Shown here one piece after another: positions 1 through 6,431 of a stretch of 64,000 nt of DNA (within the stretch, counting starts at the first letter, position 1; each line of letters starts with the position of its first letter). The translations under genes and the position numbers were made by a program. Below the pieces are notes generated by a model that saw only the letters and a program-made list of their open reading frames with translations, searched no databases and was not told the DNA's origin. This stretch comes from Bifidobacterium pseudolongum subsp. globosum (GTDB lineage Bacteria; Actinomycetota; Actinomycetes; Actinomycetales; Bifidobacteriaceae). Location: positions 1 through 64,000 of the forward strand of contig NZ_JGZG01000001.1 of NCBI RefSeq assembly GCF_000741295.1, given 5' to 3'.

Positions 1-271
1 GCTCGTCGATGCTCAGATAGCGCGATGACACAGTGGTTGTGCTGTCTTTCACCCGTCCACCATACCAATCGACCAGAGGCCTTTCGTTGCGTCCGTTCGA
101 ACGGGTTCGCCCGTTGCGCCACACCTTTCCCGTGCGCTTGGAGACGCCGACCGCGTGCGCTGCCTGGGTGAAGTTCAGTCCTTCCTCAAGCAGCTGCACA
201 TACCGGGCGCGCCGGGCCTCCTGCATGTCTCGAAGCTTCCCGTACTGCACGCCCTCGAACTCGTATGCCAT
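1..271 (-). CDS. IS30-family transposase, N-terminal part (runs off the window)
   Basis: Reading the minus strand from the ATG at 269-271 gives an open frame to the window edge, starting MAYEFEGVQYGKLRDMQEAR and followed by a helix-turn-helix-like stretch (LNFTQAAHAVGVSKRTGKVW, about residues 33-52). This fits the N-terminal DNA-binding part of IS30-type transposases found in bifidobacteria. A GGAGG ribosome-binding site lies just upstream of the ATG. The catalytic DDE core would be outside the window, so whether the element is intact is unknown. It lies about 90 bp downstream of the end of the DUF262 gene and reads in the same direction. Family assignment is from recognition of the sequence pattern. 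Confidence 0.7.
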   Translation of the reverse strand, partial: MAYEFEGVQYGKLRDMQEARRARYVQLLEEGLNFTQAAHAVGVSKRTGKVWRNGRTRSNGRNERPLVDWYGGRVKDSTTTVSSRYLSIDE

Positions 272-362
272 CGCTGCAACCTCCGACTCTCGATGGTGTT
301 GCAACGACCACTAGAATTCGCCCCGTGTGCTCGGTGGCCGCCCCCTCACGTTGTGCATGGCG
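272..362. mobile_element. Probable end region of the IS30-type element
   Basis: This short gap separates the transposase start from the end of the DUF262 gene. Insertion-element termini are expected here. A stretch reading TAGTGGTCGTTGCAACACC on the + strand complement is a plausible terminal repeat, but the other end of the element is not in the window, so the boundary and any target duplication cannot be confirmed. Confidence 0.3.
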
Positions 363-2438
363 TCACATCATCGCGCGGTACGCCTTCCAGATGTCGCTCA
401 ATGCACGACCGTCCGACTCACGCTTCCAGACGTTGAGGCTCGCCGTCGATCCGCCGATCTGCCGTGCCGCGGCCGTCGGCGTCGCGTATTCGGTGCCGTC
501 CTCTCCCTGGAACCCAGTTTCAGTGACGGTGATAATCCACGTCTCATGCTTGCGCGGCCGGTTCCACACGAACCGGTCCCCCGGTTTGAGCAGCCCCGCG
601 CGCACCACTTCGGCCACAGCCACACGCTTCGACGTGCGCTTGGACCGGTGCGCGACGCCCGGCGTGTGCGTCGAGGCCGCCGCCTGCTGTTCGGCGATCG
701 CCACATCACCGCGGTCGATGTGCCATGCCTGCGCGATGAGGTCGATGATCTGTCGTTGCCGCAACTCCAGATACTGCGGGGTGATCACCTCCAGATCGCG
801 CAGCACGCGCGTCAACGGGAACCGCCGCGAACTGGCGTCGCGCACCATGAGGTCGCGCCGTGCGCCAAAATCATCCACAGCGTTGAAATACCGCGGCGCC
901 TTCTGCGTGAGTACGAAGTTGCCGATCCGCTGCGCCCAATAGTCGCATGTGCCGGCCGGCCAAGCGGCGAACTGCGAACCGGTGGGCATGCGTTCGGGGA
1001 TGATCGGCACGGCGTTGAGGCTGCGCGGCCGTGTGATGCGCTCGCCGGCGAGCTGTTCGTTCGCACGGATGAGCAACAGCCGCCGCATGCCGGCGTCAAT
1101 CGAAAGCTCACCGCGCAGGTGCAGCATCGCGAGCCGCTGCTCGTCGGCGCTGACGCTGAACCCGGCGATGCGTTGCAGCGGCATCTGTTTCTTCAGGTCG
1201 CGCACAATCGTGGCCGCGCGCGTGCGCCGTTCGAGTTCCGACTTCCCGTTGAGGCAGTCAATGCCGGTCACGCGGTCGAGCATCGTCAGGATCTGCATCA
1301 GGCGCTCGCCATCGTGCAGCGAGGCGCGCTGTGCATTGCGGTCACCATGCGCGAAGACGACCGTGTCCGGGTCGGTCAGACCGTCGAGCGAATGGACGAG
1401 CGCCCACAATGCGACCGGCTTCCAGTCGCTGTACGGGTAGTCGCCGAGCGCACAGAGCAGGTCGACGATCGGGCGCGGCAGCAGGCTTTCGCTCGGCCGG
1501 TGCAGAATCTCGTCGCAGATTGCATACGGCCGCAGCACGTCGTCGATGAATTCGATGCATTGCCCTTTGCGGATGTACCCGTCGAGTACGTGGCCGGTGA
1601 AATCGGCGATCAGTGACTCGCAGATCGGCGTGCGCGTGAAGATGAGGTCGAGGTCGGCGAAGAACCGTTCGATGCGCGCGTTCTCGTCGCCCATCGGTTC
1701 CATGATGTCGTCCCAATAGCGCGCGTAGACGGTGCGTGCAGCGCTCGAGATACCGGAGACGACCTTCGCCTTGAACACGTCGGACGGCGTGAGCGGCATG
1801 CCTCGCATGTTCATGACGTCGAAGATGCGGTACGCTCCCGATATGTCGTCGGTCGTGACGATGACGAACATGACATCGTTGACGAGGTAGGCAGCGAACT
1901 GCCGGCGTTCGTCGTCGGTCATCGACGCGAGCATGTCGTACGCGCATTTCGTATTCATCTGGATGTTGCGCTGCGCCTGCGTCGCGATGTCCGTGTCGCG
2001 CAGGTCGAACAGCGCCTCGAGGTCGCCGTGCTGCACGTATTCGCGGAAGAACTCCTCGTCCTGCTCGCGCAGCCTGAGGCGCGGCTCGGTCTCGATGCCG
2101 CGCAGTTTGTCGCCCGCTTCGGTGAGCAGGCCGGCGAGGCTCGCGTGCAGTTGCGGGTCCTCTTCGAGCGTGAGCAGCACCGCGAAGATGATGGACAGCG
2201 ACACCAGACGCTGCTGCCCGTCGATCACCTGGTGCATGCCGTGCTCGTCGCGCACGAGGATGAGGGAGCCCAGGAAATACGGCCCGTCGTGCACGGCGCA
2301 CGCGTCCATGACGTCTTCGATGAGTTGCTTCATCTGCACGTTGTGCCAGCTGTACGAACGCTGGAACGCCGGAATCGCGAACCGGTAGTCGGCGGTGAAC
2401 ACTTTGGACAGCGGTTTTTCGCTTGCGCTAATCGACAT
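363..2438 (-). CDS. DUF262/DUF1524 (GmrSD-like) protein with C-terminal RAMA-type domain
   Basis: 691 residues from ATG 2438, chosen because a strong AGGGGG site precedes it. The N-terminal DUF262 (ParB-like nuclease fold) is shown by IPAFQRSYSW (about 22-31), YFLGSLIL and the VIDGQQRL motif (about 71-78). The middle/C-terminal region around YWAQRIGNFVLT matches DUF1524, but the usual HIxPQ histidine motif is replaced by VPIIPERM. The last ~90 residues (LLKPGDRF..., YATPTAAARQIGG, NVWKRESDGRALSDIW) resemble a RAMA domain, predicted in restriction systems to sense modified DNA. Family members act as modification-dependent (type IV) restriction enzymes; that role is inferred here. The start overlaps the end of the upstream nicotinamidase gene by 11 bp, suggesting translational coupling. 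Confidence 0.8.
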   Translation of the reverse strand: MSISASEKPLSKVFTADYRFAIPAFQRSYSWHNVQMKQLIEDVMDACAVHDGPYFLGSLILVRDEHGMHQVIDGQQRLVSLSIIFAVLLTLEEDPQLHASLAGLLTEAGDKLRGIETEPRLRLREQDEEFFREYVQHGDLEALFDLRDTDIATQAQRNIQMNTKCAYDMLASMTDDERRQFAAYLVNDVMFVIVTTDDISGAYRIFDVMNMRGMPLTPSDVFKAKVVSGISSAARTVYARYWDDIMEPMGDENARIERFFADLDLIFTRTPICESLIADFTGHVLDGYIRKGQCIEFIDDVLRPYAICDEILHRPSESLLPRPIVDLLCALGDYPYSDWKPVALWALVHSLDGLTDPDTVVFAHGDRNAQRASLHDGERLMQILTMLDRVTGIDCLNGKSELERRTRAATIVRDLKKQMPLQRIAGFSVSADEQRLAMLHLRGELSIDAGMRRLLLIRANEQLAGERITRPRSLNAVPIIPERMPTGSQFAAWPAGTCDYWAQRIGNFVLTQKAPRYFNAVDDFGARRDLMVRDASSRRFPLTRVLRDLEVITPQYLELRQRQIIDLIAQAWHIDRGDVAIAEQQAAASTHTPGVAHRSKRTSKRVAVAEVVRAGLLKPGDRFVWNRPRKHETWIITVTETGFQGEDGTEYATPTAAARQIGGSTASLNVWKRESDGRALSDIWKAYRAMM

Positions 2439-3069
2439 AATCGTCCCCCTCAATGATTGTGACCCCGGCCCGCCGCATCCGTTCGACAGCCGCCGCACCC
2501 AACTCCTCGCTCACCGGAACGCTCAGGTCGGTGTACACGCGCACATCGTAGCCGCGCGATGCCGCATCGAGCGCGGTGTCGCGCACACAATGCGACAACG
2601 CGATGCCCACGATGTCGACGCGTGTGACGCCTGCTCCGGTGAGCAGCGCGTCGAGCGTGCGGCCCGCGGCGAGCGCCTCGGCCACATCGTCGCGCGTGGG
2701 GATGGCCTTGCCGTTGTCTTCGACGCCTTCGAACCCGGAGTACGCGGCGCTGTACTGCCCCTTCTTGATGTGGTGCGGCACGCCGAGCGACTCGACCGCC
2801 GGGTGCAGGCGCGCATTCGGCGTGCCGGCCGCGCCGTGCACCGGCCATGTGTCGACGAAATCCGGGTGGTCGGACCAATGCTCCCCCGGTTCGACATGCC
2901 AGTCCTGCGTCGTCGCGATGAGCGTATACCGGCTGCGGTTGCGCTCGGCGAACCCATGGATGCGCTCGGCTACCGCGTTGCCGCCCTCAACGGCGAGCTC
3001 GCCGCCCTCCGTGAACGTTGGCTGTACATCGACGATGATCAGTGCTGTGTTGTTCGTGCCCACGTGCAC
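2428..3069 (-). CDS. pncA: Nicotinamidase / isochorismatase-family hydrolase
   Basis: 213 residues. Nicotinamidase converts nicotinamide to nicotinate plus ammonia for NAD salvage. Seen: catalytic Asp in ALIIVDVQ (about 9-16), metal-site region DWHVEPGEHWSDHPDF (about 56-71), the Lys in HIKKGQY, and the catalytic Cys in GIALSHCVRDTALDA. Length is normal for PncA. The start is GTG; a second GTG two codons on lies 8 nt after a TATAGA box, so a leaderless start there is possible. Downstream it overlaps the GmrSD-like gene. It fits with the NrtR/MFS pair at 31.6-33.9 kb, since bifidobacteria generally salvage NAD precursors. An isochorismatase-like hydrolase of other specificity is the alternative. 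Confidence 0.85.
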   Translation of the reverse strand: MHVGTNNTALIIVDVQPTFTEGGELAVEGGNAVAERIHGFAERNRSRYTLIATTQDWHVEPGEHWSDHPDFVDTWPVHGAAGTPNARLHPAVESLGVPHHIKKGQYSAAYSGFEGVEDNGKAIPTRDDVAEALAAGRTLDALLTGAGVTRVDIVGIALSHCVRDTALDAASRGYDVRVYTDLSVPVSEELGAAAVERMRRAGVTIIEGDDYVD

Positions 3070-3667: not shown

Positions 3668-6370
3668 TCACTCGCTCATCAGATTGCGCAGCACGTACTG
3701 CAGGATGCCGCCATTGCGGTAATAGTCGGCTTCGCCAGGCGTGTCGATGCGCACCACGGCTTCGAACTCGGTCTTCGAGCCGTCCTTGTGCGTCGCCTCG
3801 ACGTGCACGGTCTTCGGCGTCACGCCCTGATTGAGCGCGTCGATCCCGGTGATCGAGTAGACCTCGGTGCCGTTCAGGCCGAGCGATTCCGCCGATTCGC
3901 CTTCGGGGAACTGCAGCGGCAGCACGCCCATGCCGATGAGGTTGGAACGGTGGATGCGCTCGAAGCTTTCGACGATGACGGCCTTGACACCGAGCATCGC
4001 GGTGCCCTTCGCCGCCCAGTCGCGCGAGGAGCCGGTGCCGTATTCCTTGCCGCCGATGACGACGAGCGGCGTGCCGTTCGCGATGTAGTCGCGTGAGGCC
4101 TCGTAGATCGTCGTCGGCTTCATCGCCAGGAAGTCGTAGGTGTAGCCACCCGGCTTGATCTCCTCGCCCACCGACGCGAGCAGCATATTGCGCAGGCGGA
4201 TGTTGCCGAACGTGCCGCGTACCATGACTTCGTGGTTGCCACGGCGCGAACCGTACGAATTGAAGTTCTTCGGCTGCACGCCATGCTCCACAAGGTATTC
4301 GCCCGCGGGGCTCGTCGCCTTGAACGCGCCGGCCGGCGAGATGTGGTCGGTCGTGACCGAGTCGCCGAGGAACGCGAGCACGCGTGCGTCGCGGATGTCC
4401 TCGACCGGGGCCGGCTCGGCGCCCATGCCGTCGAAGAACGTCTGCTTGCGCACATACGTCGACTCCGGATCCCATGCGAACAGTTCGCCTTCGGGCACGT
4501 CAAGGCCCTTCCAGCGCGCGTCGCCTTCGAACACCGAAGCGTAGTCGTTGAGGAACATCTCACGGCTCACATTGCTGCTCACCACCTGCTCGACCTCGTC
4601 GTTCGTGGGCCAGATGTCCTTGAGGTACACCGGCTTGCCTTCCGGGTCGGTGCCAAGCGGCTCCGTCTCGAAGTCGAAGTCCATCGTGCCGGCGAGCGCA
4701 TAGGCGATGACGAGCGGCGGCGAGGCGAGGTAGTTCATCTTGACGTCCGGGCTGATGCGGCCTTCGAAGTTGCGGTTGCCCGACAGCACGGCGGTCACCG
4801 TGAGGTCGTTCGCGTTGATCGCTTCGGAGATCTCCGGCAGCAGTGGGCCGGAATTGCCGATGCATGTGGCGCAGCCGAAGCCGACGAGCTGGTAGCCGAG
4901 GCGGTCGAGGTCCTCCTGCAGGCCAGCCTGCTTCAAGTAGTCGGCCACGACCTGCGAGCCCGGGGCGAGCGAGGTCTTGACCCATGGCTTGGGCTTGAGG
5001 CCCCTCGCCACGGCGTTGCGCGCGATGAGGCCGGCGGCGATCATGACCGAGGGGTTCGAGGTGTTGGTGCACGAGGTGATCGAGGCGATTGCCACGTCGC
5101 CGTTCTGGATGTCGAAGTCGCCGCGGAAATCGGTCGAGACGTGCACGGGGTTGCCGTTCGTCTTCTCGGTCACATAGCCAGGCAGTGTCTCTTCGAACGT
5201 CGTCTTCGCACGGTTGAGCTCGATGCGGTCCTGCGGGCGCTTCGGGCCGGCAATCGACGGCACGACCGTCGACAGGTCGAGCTCGAGGTATTCGGAGTAC
5301 TGCGGCTCCACATACTGCGGGTCGTTGACGTCGTGCCACAGCTTGTTCGCCTTCGCATACGCCTCGACGAGCGCCACCTGCTCGTCGGAACGGCCGGTCA
5401 GGCGCAGGTAGTCGAGCGTGACGTTATCGATCGGGAAGATGCCGCACGTCGAGCCGAACTCCGGGCTCATGTTGCCGATCGTCGCGCGGTTGGCGAGCGG
5501 GACGGACGCGATGCCTTCGCCGTAGAACTCGACGAACTTGCCGACGACGCCGTGCTGGCGCAGCATGTCGGTGATGGTGAGCACCACGTCGGTCGCTGTG
5601 ACGCCTTCGGGGATCGCCCCCTTGAGCTTGAAGCCGACGACGCGCGGCACGAGCATCGAGATCGGCTGGCCGAGCATGGCGGCCTCGGCTTCGATGCCGC
5701 CGACGCCCCAGCCGAGCACACCGAGGCCGTTGACGGTCGTGGTGTGCGAGTCGGTGCCGACGCACGAATCGAGGTACGCGAGCGTCCTACCGTCGGCGGC
5801 GGCCTTGCGCATGACGACCTGGGCGAGGTATTCGATGTTGACCTGGTGGATGATGCCTGTCCCCGGCGGCACCACGCGGAAGTTCTCGAAGGCCTGCTGG
5901 CCCCAGCGCAGGAACTGGTAGCGTTCGCCGTTGCGTTCGTATTCGATGTCCATGTTGATCTGCACGGCGTCATCCACACCGTAGGCGTCGATCTGCACGG
6001 AATGGTCGATGATCATGTCGGACTGCACCTGCGGGTTGATCACCTCGGGGTTGCCTCCGAGCTCCTTGACGGCGTCGCGCATCGTGGCCAGGTCGACGAC
6101 GCACGGCACGCCGGTGAAGTCCTGCATGACGACGCGCGACGGCGTGAACTGGATCTCATGGCTTGGATCGGCTGCAGGGTCCCAATCGAGCAGCGCCTTC
6201 ACGTGCTCGTCGGTGATGTTGGCGCCGTCCTCGTTGCGCACAAGGTTCTCGACGAGCACCTTGAGCGAATAAGGAAGGTGGTCAATGCCCTCAAGGTCGG
6301 CGATGCGGTAGTAGTCGTACGACTGCTCCCCGACGTTGAGGACGTCCAGCTGGTCGTCGCGCATGGACAT
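3668..6370 (-). CDS. acn: Aconitate hydratase
   Basis: 900 residues from ATG 6370 (GGAGGAAACCC site); an upstream GTG at 6412 lacks such a site. AcnA/IRP-type [4Fe-4S] aconitase converting citrate to isocitrate in the cytosol. Seen: [19 protein letters not shown] (about 207-225), [12 protein letters not shown] and [14 protein letters not shown] with the three cluster cysteines, and the C-terminal swivel domain with [11 protein letters not shown] and [18 protein letters not shown]. Length is normal. Bifidobacteria have a partial TCA cycle, where aconitase supplies 2-oxoglutarate for glutamate. The P-type ATPase lies 61 bp upstream on the same strand. An acn gene near a TRAM-type methyltransferase and DUF3710/DUF3159 genes recurs in actinobacteria (recalled, not checked). 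Confidence 0.97.
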
Positions 6371-6431
6371 GGGTTTCCTCCGAACGTGTTGTGGAACTGG
6401 TGATTGGCTCACACGATACCGTGTGCATGTT

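What the first reader, a model, noticed from the sequence alone, without database searches (positions are those of the whole stretch)
363..2438. GmrSD-like protein with a RAMA-type C-terminal domain and an altered HNH motif
DUF262 is well preserved (QRSYSW, DGQQR) and the last ~90 residues look like a RAMA domain, proposed to read modified DNA. The usual HIxPQ of DUF1524 reads VPIIPERM, so the nuclease half may be dead or altered. A modification sensor fused to a GTP/NTP-type restriction module would be a variant of type IV restriction.
Basis: partly seen in the sequence, partly recalled or inferred. Interest (0 to 1): 0.55.

Follow-up and report, generated by a model that had tools for sequence, protein, structure and literature searches.

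The report
Bifidobacterial GmrSD relative lacking nuclease site
A gene kept near one chromosomal spot in many Bifidobacterium species looks like a DNA-cutting defence enzyme whose cutting site has been lost while its energy-using half and its DNA-binding tail are strongly preserved, so it probably senses DNA without cutting it.

Summary
Window 363-2438 (-) encodes a 691-aa protein with a GmrSD_N/DUF262 domain (2.8e-35) and a C-terminal RAMA domain (1.1e-14, above Pfam's cut-off). The predicted RAMA fold matches MPND (Z 11.2) and CcrM (Z 9.9). The middle is a DUF1524 homologue without a nuclease site. Among 68 orthologues the catalytic acid is present in 0, the His in 3 and the last Asn (521) in 0, while DGQQR is present in 68. 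Alanine at the acid or the His abolishes cutting but not ATP hydrolysis in BrxU (PMC8565348).

It occurs in 60 of 112 genomes of the genus and lies within 15 kb of acnA in 48 of 50 testable genomes. Its four domains are under purifying selection (median dN/dS 0.06-0.13 in 18 chosen pairs). Two ordinary GmrSD genes of the same genome match in only 9 and 3 of 112.

GmrSD-RAMA fusion itself is not new: HNH-intact versions occur in the same family of bacteria. The new part is a conserved, HNH-less form. Best reading: a DNA-sensing NTPase that no longer cuts. What it senses and does next is inferred.

The parts
363..2438 (-). DUF262 - pseudo-DUF1524 - RAMA protein, 691 aa, with stop codon
   Evidence: orthologues
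1761..2408 (-). DUF262 / GmrSD_N domain (residues 11-226); ParB/Srx-like NTPase domain according to the literature
   Evidence: Pfam PF03235 E 2.8e-35; 14 motif residues checked are invariant in 68 of 68
2208..2222 (-). DGQQR nucleotide motif (residues 73-77)
   Evidence: 68 of 68 orthologues and 7 of 7 intact relatives
714..1151 (-). degenerate DUF1524 domain (residues about 430-575), scaffold kept, HNH site lost
   Evidence: 36 of 47 orthologues hit PF07510; 29-33% blastp alignments through residue 574 to HNH-intact relatives; residue tables; median dN/dS 0.105
990..1010 (-). VPIIPER (residues 477-483), the position of VEHxxPQ in intact relatives
372..656 (-). RAMA domain (residues 595-689)
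   Evidence: Pfam PF18755 54.6 bits; fold match to MPND and CcrM
2428..3069 (-). upstream isochorismatase-family gene (nicotinamidase is my guess); its stop overlaps the target's start by 11 nt
   Evidence: (PF00857 E 1.2e-22); placed directly before the target in 9 of 47 loci
3668..6412 (-). acnA (aconitase), positional landmark of the locus
   Evidence: distance table

Best explanation
It is a GmrSD-family protein that has lost its nuclease and is kept for a non-cutting job. Shown here: nucleotide motifs intact in DUF262, an HNH site dismantled throughout one clade while the rest of that domain stays under purifying selection, a RAMA fold at the C-terminus, and a nearly fixed chromosomal place. 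Inferred: RAMA holds the protein on double-stranded DNA, probably favouring modified (foreign) DNA. DNA binding and NTP binding then switch the DUF262 dimer, as in BrxU and SspE. The pseudo-DUF1524 domain serves as a DNA-binding or partner-binding scaffold, not as a cutter. The outcome (blocking, signalling or recruiting another nuclease) is unknown. I favour sensing of foreign modified DNA over regulation of the cell's own genome.
For: Catalytic acid in 0 of 68, His in 3 of 68, Asn521 equivalent in 0 of 68, against 7 of 7 in intact relatives for each; DGQQR in 68 of 68. In BrxU, D474A and H475A lose resistance and cutting but keep wild-type ATP hydrolysis, and Q101A/R102A reduce hydrolysis (PMC8565348, passages). 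Median dN/dS over 18 chosen pairs: DUF262 0.063, middle 0.134, pseudo-DUF1524 0.105, RAMA 0.088. 68 genomes with a full-length orthologue (60 of 112 in the genus, 8 in a sister genus), no internal stop in any listed copy. 48 of the 50 that share a contig with acnA lie within 15 kb of it. RAMA fold: 7ydt Z 11.2, 7ydw Z 11.1, 6pbd Z 9.9, next row 5.2. For the foreign-DNA part: the window's genome has no match at E <= 0.001 to four DNA methyltransferase families, PF02384, PF01555, PF00145 and PF02086, so no own mark was found for RAMA to read.
Against: No activity, binding or phenotype data. MPND's RAMA bound DNA regardless of 6mA (PMC9963953). ParB/Srx proteins can have nuclease activity (PMC4619093), so DUF262 itself could cut. 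Neither AlphaFold job gave a usable model outside RAMA (mean pLDDT 38.4 and 49.6), so the pseudo-DUF1524 fold rests on sequence alone. 52 of 112 genomes of the genus lack a full-length copy. The linker (576-600) shows no constraint in some pairs (dN/dS up to 1.9). Type IIG and other methyltransferase families were not searched in the window's genome.
Confidence: 0.6

Rival explanations
1. It is still a restriction enzyme: cutting is done by DUF262 (ParB/Srx folds can be nucleases), by a rebuilt site in the C-terminal half, or by a partner nuclease such as one of the other GmrSD proteins of the cell.
For: DUF262 invariant motifs; ParB/Srx nuclease precedents (PMC4619093 passages); DUF262 proteins without DUF1524 occur in other defence systems (PMC10952713 passages); three more GmrSD genes with DUF1524 in the same genome.
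Against: In BrxU cutting needs the HNH acid and His. No neighbouring gene is shared by all 47 loci examined, some of them short. Two of the other GmrSD genes match in only 9 and 3 of 112 genomes, so they cannot be the general partner; the third (L088) was not counted.
Confidence: 0.2
2. A housekeeping or regulatory protein: a former type IV enzyme now binding the cell's own DNA as a nucleotide-switched clamp or regulator.
For: Nearly fixed place near acnA and intact genes in 60 of 112 genus genomes; purifying selection on the four domains.
Against: 52 of 112 genomes do without it; no shared neighbour; no match to four methyltransferase families in the window's genome; methylation motifs differ between two B. 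longum strains (PMC4618763 passages), so a shared own mark is unlikely.
Confidence: 0.15
3. A decaying restriction gene without function.
For: HNH site lost; a 3' stub in one genome (L085).
Against: Purifying selection including the HNH-less domain; no internal stops in the listed copies.
Confidence: 0.03
4. RAMA is only a non-specific DNA-binding tail and the protein senses some other cue through DUF262.
For: MPND and CcrM RAMA contact the backbone without base contacts, and 6mA made no difference to MPND (PMC9963953 passages).
Against: RAMA above the Pfam cut-off in 60 of 60 genus genomes with the gene; RAMA is joined to GmrSD in a separate group of proteins too.
Confidence: 0.02

Closest known systems
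GmrSD / BrxU / Eco94GmrSD type IV restriction enzymes (DUF262 + DUF1524)
   Same: DUF262 with DGQQR, DUF1524-derived C-terminal domain
   Different: HNH acid and His absent, RAMA added, nearly fixed chromosomal place
Actinobacterial HNH-intact GmrSD without RAMA (L081, L089-L094)
   Same: nearest relatives found outside the clade, 29-33% through residue 574
   Different: VEHVLPQ or IEHVLPQ intact; proteins end at about the residue-574 equivalent. Pfam was run only on L081: no RAMA
GmrSD-RAMA(-DUF4268) proteins of Bifidobacteriaceae (L082-084, L115, L116, L118, L119)
   Same: DUF262, DUF1524 and RAMA in the same order
   Different: EHxxP intact; DUF4268 above cut-off in L082-084, below it in L115 and L118; separate branch of the tree for the five included
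SspE (phosphorothioate-sensing, DUF262 + DUF1524)
   Same: DUF262 matches 6jiv, E 6.2e-14
   Different: SspE's DUF1524 nicks DNA (PMC10952713 passages); here that site is lost
Menshen, Dazbog and PD-T4-2 proteins with DUF262 but no DUF1524
   Same: DUF262 without a working DUF1524 (PMC10952713 passages)
   Different: Menshen's DUF262 gene is paired with an OLD nuclease; no shared neighbour here
MPND and CcrM RAMA domains
   Same: fold
   Different: joined to an MPN domain and a methyltransferase, not to DUF262
GmrSD proteins with a DUF4357 domain (Machnicka 2015)
   Same: DUF4357 overlaps our RAMA region weakly (21 of 47 orthologues at E <= 0.01; ranges), so some of those proteins may carry RAMA-like tails
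   Different: that paper does not use the name RAMA and I did not examine its sequences

Membership tests
GmrSD type IV restriction family | DUF262 with (I/V)DGQQR | tested here: met
GmrSD type IV restriction family | DUF1524 domain | tested here: inconclusive
   window protein has no PF07510 match; 36 of 47 orthologues do; alignable with intact relatives through residue 574
GmrSD type IV restriction family | HNH motif (E/D)HxxPQ with downstream Asn | tested here: not met
   acid 0 of 68, His 3 of 68, Asn521 equivalent 0 of 68
GmrSD type IV restriction family | NTP-stimulated cleavage of modified DNA | not testable with these tools
   needs biochemistry
GmrSD type IV restriction family | defence- or mobility-linked genomic setting (frequent in the family, not strictly defining) | tested here: inconclusive
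   48 of 50 within 15 kb of acnA, which argues against mobility; defence genes nearby were not searched by model in each locus
RAMA domain family (PF18755) | Pfam score above cut-off | tested here: met
   54.6 bits against 35.2; 47 of 47 orthologues match at E <= 0.01
RAMA domain family (PF18755) | RAMA fold | tested here: met
   MPND Z 11.2, rmsd 2.0 over 83 residues; CcrM Z 9.9, rmsd 3.0 over 85
RAMA domain family (PF18755) | binding of modified DNA | not testable with these tools
   disputed even for MPND
SspABCD-SspE | phosphorothioation genes with it | not tested
   no search for ssp or dnd genes was made
Menshen / Dazbog / PD-T4-2 | partner gene beside the DUF262 gene | tested here: inconclusive
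   no neighbour shared by all 47 loci; partner families were not searched by model

The most novel reading that the evidence does not exclude
A type IV restriction enzyme was turned, on the stem of the Bifidobacterium lineage, into a permanent chromosomal DNA-mark reader: RAMA loads it on DNA, DUF262 works as a ParB-like nucleotide switch, and the dead HNH domain has become a conserved docking surface, so that the protein regulates or signals instead of cutting.
Probability: 0.25. Interest if true: 0.72.

Novelty: new variant of a known kind. Interest (0 to 1): 0.47.

Why it matters
If right, it is a natural separation of sensing from cutting in the GmrSD family: a widespread, conserved set of proteins in which NTP switching and DNA binding must be useful without the nuclease. 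It would allow RAMA's disputed role as a modified-base reader to be tested in a bacterial protein without DNA cleavage interfering, and it may bear on how methylated DNA fares in bifidobacteria.

Tried and rejected
Foldseek on that model gave no hit at E <= 0.001; only the second look resolved the RAMA matches. A second job on residues 425-580 stayed at mean pLDDT 49.6, so no DUF1524 fold was shown by structure. The five PDB sequences matched by the profile are two named SspE and three named only DUF262 domain-containing protein; none is named BrxU.

Searches that led nowhere: viral contigs gave 53 pattern matches and no relative; 7 phage records have partial matches over at most 41% of the query; 1,098 plasmid records match, all under 60% identity, the best listed near 32%. 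PDB sequence searches with RAMA alone found no RAMA chain. Rfam found nothing at gathering scores in the window.

Considered and rejected: broken gene; fixed operon with the isochorismatase gene (directly upstream in only 9 of 47 loci); RAMA shared by descent with the GmrSD-RAMA-DUF4268 group (the tree puts that group apart, but the tool warns of long branches and the root is a midpoint).

Against simple vertical descent: identity to the window correlates only moderately with that of AcnA (Spearman 0.59 over 68 genomes, 0.39 over the 60 below 70%). Orientation relative to acnA varies, and the 15-kb limit was set after seeing the distances; 34 of 50 are within 2 kb. 18 of 68 lie on another contig than acnA and could not be placed; 2 of 50 lie far away. 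Of 15 acnA neighbourhoods sampled from genomes without the gene, 14 keep no trace and 1 keeps a 3' stub.

Parts used: the tree holds 15 of the 47 then aligned orthologues, 6 of 7 intact relatives, 5 GmrSD-RAMA proteins and 3 other GmrSD proteins of the window's genome. Residue counts use all 68. dN/dS uses 18 close pairs that I chose. L095 (a 119-aa fragment) was left out of residue counts. One genome (G157) has two copies; one was used.

Full report
Observation. The ORF at 363-2438 on the minus strand encodes 691 aa from an ATG at 2438. Pfam finds GmrSD_N at 11-226 (E 2.8e-35) and RAMA at 595-689 (E 1.1e-14, 54.6 bits, cut-off 35.2), and lists no GmrSD_C at E <= 10. NCBIfam's only, weak, match is CcrM at 579-630 (E 0.075, far below its cut-off), which fits a RAMA domain. 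PADLOC's best matches are 'Orf5' (1.5e-63), HEC-06 and SspE models, with their best stretches in the N-terminal part.

RAMA. AlphaFold gave a usable model only from about residue 605 on (10-residue means 61-86 from residue 611; nearly all the rest below 50). The second-look aligner put mouse MPND first and second (Z 11.2 and 11.1, 83 residues) and CcrM third (Z 9.9), with the next row at 5.2. So the fold is RAMA. What RAMA reads is open: MPND was reported to sense 6mA, but the structural paper saw no significant effect of 6mA and no base contacts (PMC9963953, passages); PMC11037411 (passage) names RAMA-nuclease fusions as subjects for future study.

The HNH region. The nearest relatives outside the clade are actinobacterial GmrSD proteins (L081, L089-L094) that align at 29-33% through residue 574 and carry VEHVLPQ or IEHVLPQ. 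Across all 68 full-length orthologues found in the family search, aligned with these seven: the acid is L, V, I or M in 68 of 68; the His is P, R, A or T in 65 of 68 and His in 3 (L047, L057, L040), without the acid; the Asn at column 521 is absent in 68 of 68; column 516 has Asn in 5 of 68; the His at column 503 is absent in 68 of 68. Scaffold positions persist: P481, W501, R504, G506 and L510 in 68 of 68, N507 in 67 of 68. The 14 DUF262 motif residues checked are kept in 68 of 68. 36 of 47 orthologues hit PF07510 at E <= 0.01 (the window protein does not); in L063, L077, L079 and L121 the match starts at profile position 54. In BrxU, D474A and H475A abolish phage resistance and DNA digestion with wild-type Pi release, whereas Q101A and R102A of DGQQR reduce hydrolysis (PMC8565348, passages). 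I therefore infer an NTPase that cannot cut in the BrxU way.

Not a broken gene. Nei-Gojobori dN/dS over 18 chosen pairs, medians: DUF262 0.063, middle 0.134, pseudo-DUF1524 0.105, RAMA 0.088, whole protein 0.122; the linker has 0.206 over 17 pairs and exceeds 1 in some. No listed copy has an internal stop.

Where it lives. 60 of 112 genomes of the genus and 8 of a sister genus carry it (genus total). RAMA over the cut-off occurs in 62 of 112 genus genomes. Sixty of these are the same genomes as carry this gene; the other two have other proteins, a GmrSD-RAMA gene in G109 and a split one in G033. Of 50 genomes where gene and acnA share a contig, 48 have them within 15 kb and 34 within 2 kb; 18 more cannot be judged. 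Immediate neighbours vary: an isochorismatase-family gene directly precedes it in 9 of 47 loci, the window's group, with an 11-nt overlap in the window; elsewhere other genes. No neighbour is shared by all 47 loci, some of which are short. By contrast two GmrSD genes with DUF1524 of the same genome (L087 and L086) match in 9 and 3 of 112 genomes at E <= 1e-60, three of those copies with a stop inside. Of 15 acnA regions sampled from genomes lacking the gene, one (L085) keeps a 3' stub and 14 nothing; reversed queries gave 0 hits.

Relatives with the same architecture. GmrSD with an intact EHxxP motif plus RAMA occurs in Bifidobacteriaceae (L082-084, L115, L116, L118, L119), with a DUF4268 tail above cut-off in L082-084 and below it in L115 and L118, and in a distant actinobacterium (L097). 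L103 has a diverged EHIWANK and RAMA. In a 29-row tree the 15 target rows form one clade (100/100, stem 1.54) that groups with the intact RAMA-less relatives (98/95; those relatives' own clade only 82/71), while the five GmrSD-RAMA rows sit elsewhere (midpoint root, long-branch warning). This suggests that RAMA joined GmrSD more than once and that the HNH was lost on the stem of the target clade. In a class-wide sample (394 genomes, 2 candidates scored each) seven other genomes matched at E <= 1e-30: six HNH-intact proteins and one fragment. In a phylum-wide sample with the C-terminal part (396 genomes, 6 scored each) seven other genomes matched at E <= 1e-8 and I recognised no HNH-less GmrSD among them, though two loci (L101, L104) were left unresolved.

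What it may sense. The window's genome, rated 99.98% complete, has no match at E <= 0.001 to N6_Mtase, N6_N4_Mtase, DNA_methylase or MethyltransfD12 (the controls ring in 13, 11, 10 and 4 of 14 known genomes). Other methyltransferase families were not searched. Two B. longum strains carry different methylation motifs (PMC4618763, passages). Both facts speak against a shared own mark and for foreign modified DNA; neither is proof.

Literature. Machnicka 2015 lists DUF4268, DUF4357 and PF01035 as extra domains of GmrSD (PMC4619093, section 12 read); the word RAMA does not occur in its main text, but DUF4357 overlaps our RAMA region weakly (21 of 47 orthologues), so RAMA-like tails may already be among its proteins under that name. 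The only held paper with both DUF262 and RAMA mentions RAMA-HNH fusions as an author's current work (PMC12707154, passages). Searches for Bifidobacterium with DUF262 (3 papers) and with GmrSD (1 paper) gave nothing on this protein in the listings. So I found no description of an HNH-less GmrSD-RAMA family in these searches; most subscription papers and bioRxiv preprints are outside the library.

Verdict. Observation confirmed; interpretation partly supported. A new variant of a known kind: a conserved, HNH-less, RAMA-bearing GmrSD relative at a nearly fixed place in Bifidobacterium. Mechanism inferred.

Noticed in passing
window 2-304 (-): Start of a helix-turn-helix gene (HTH_23, E 4.1e-6), IS30-transposase-like by eye and recall, running off the contig start just downstream of the target gene; an insertion element may have caused the assembly break.
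   Followed up: partly
window 2428-2438: Isochorismatase-family gene and target overlap by 11 nt with a GAGGGGGA stretch before the target's ATG, suggesting coupled translation in this lineage.
   Followed up: partly
G000 contigs C5 and C7 (L086, L087, L088): The genome carries three more GmrSD genes with DUF1524 and no match to four DNA methyltransferase families: four modification-dependent-type genes in a host that may be little methylated.
   Followed up: partly
L117 4410-6897: A GmrSD-RAMA gene split into two ORFs (600 codons and 239 aa), apparently broken.
   Followed up: no
L085 7241-7405: 3' stub of the target gene near acnA in a genome that lacks the rest.
   Followed up: yes
L115 13-3330: A 1,106-aa GmrSD-RAMA frame with long low-complexity Gly/Ala/Ser inserts.
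   Followed up: no
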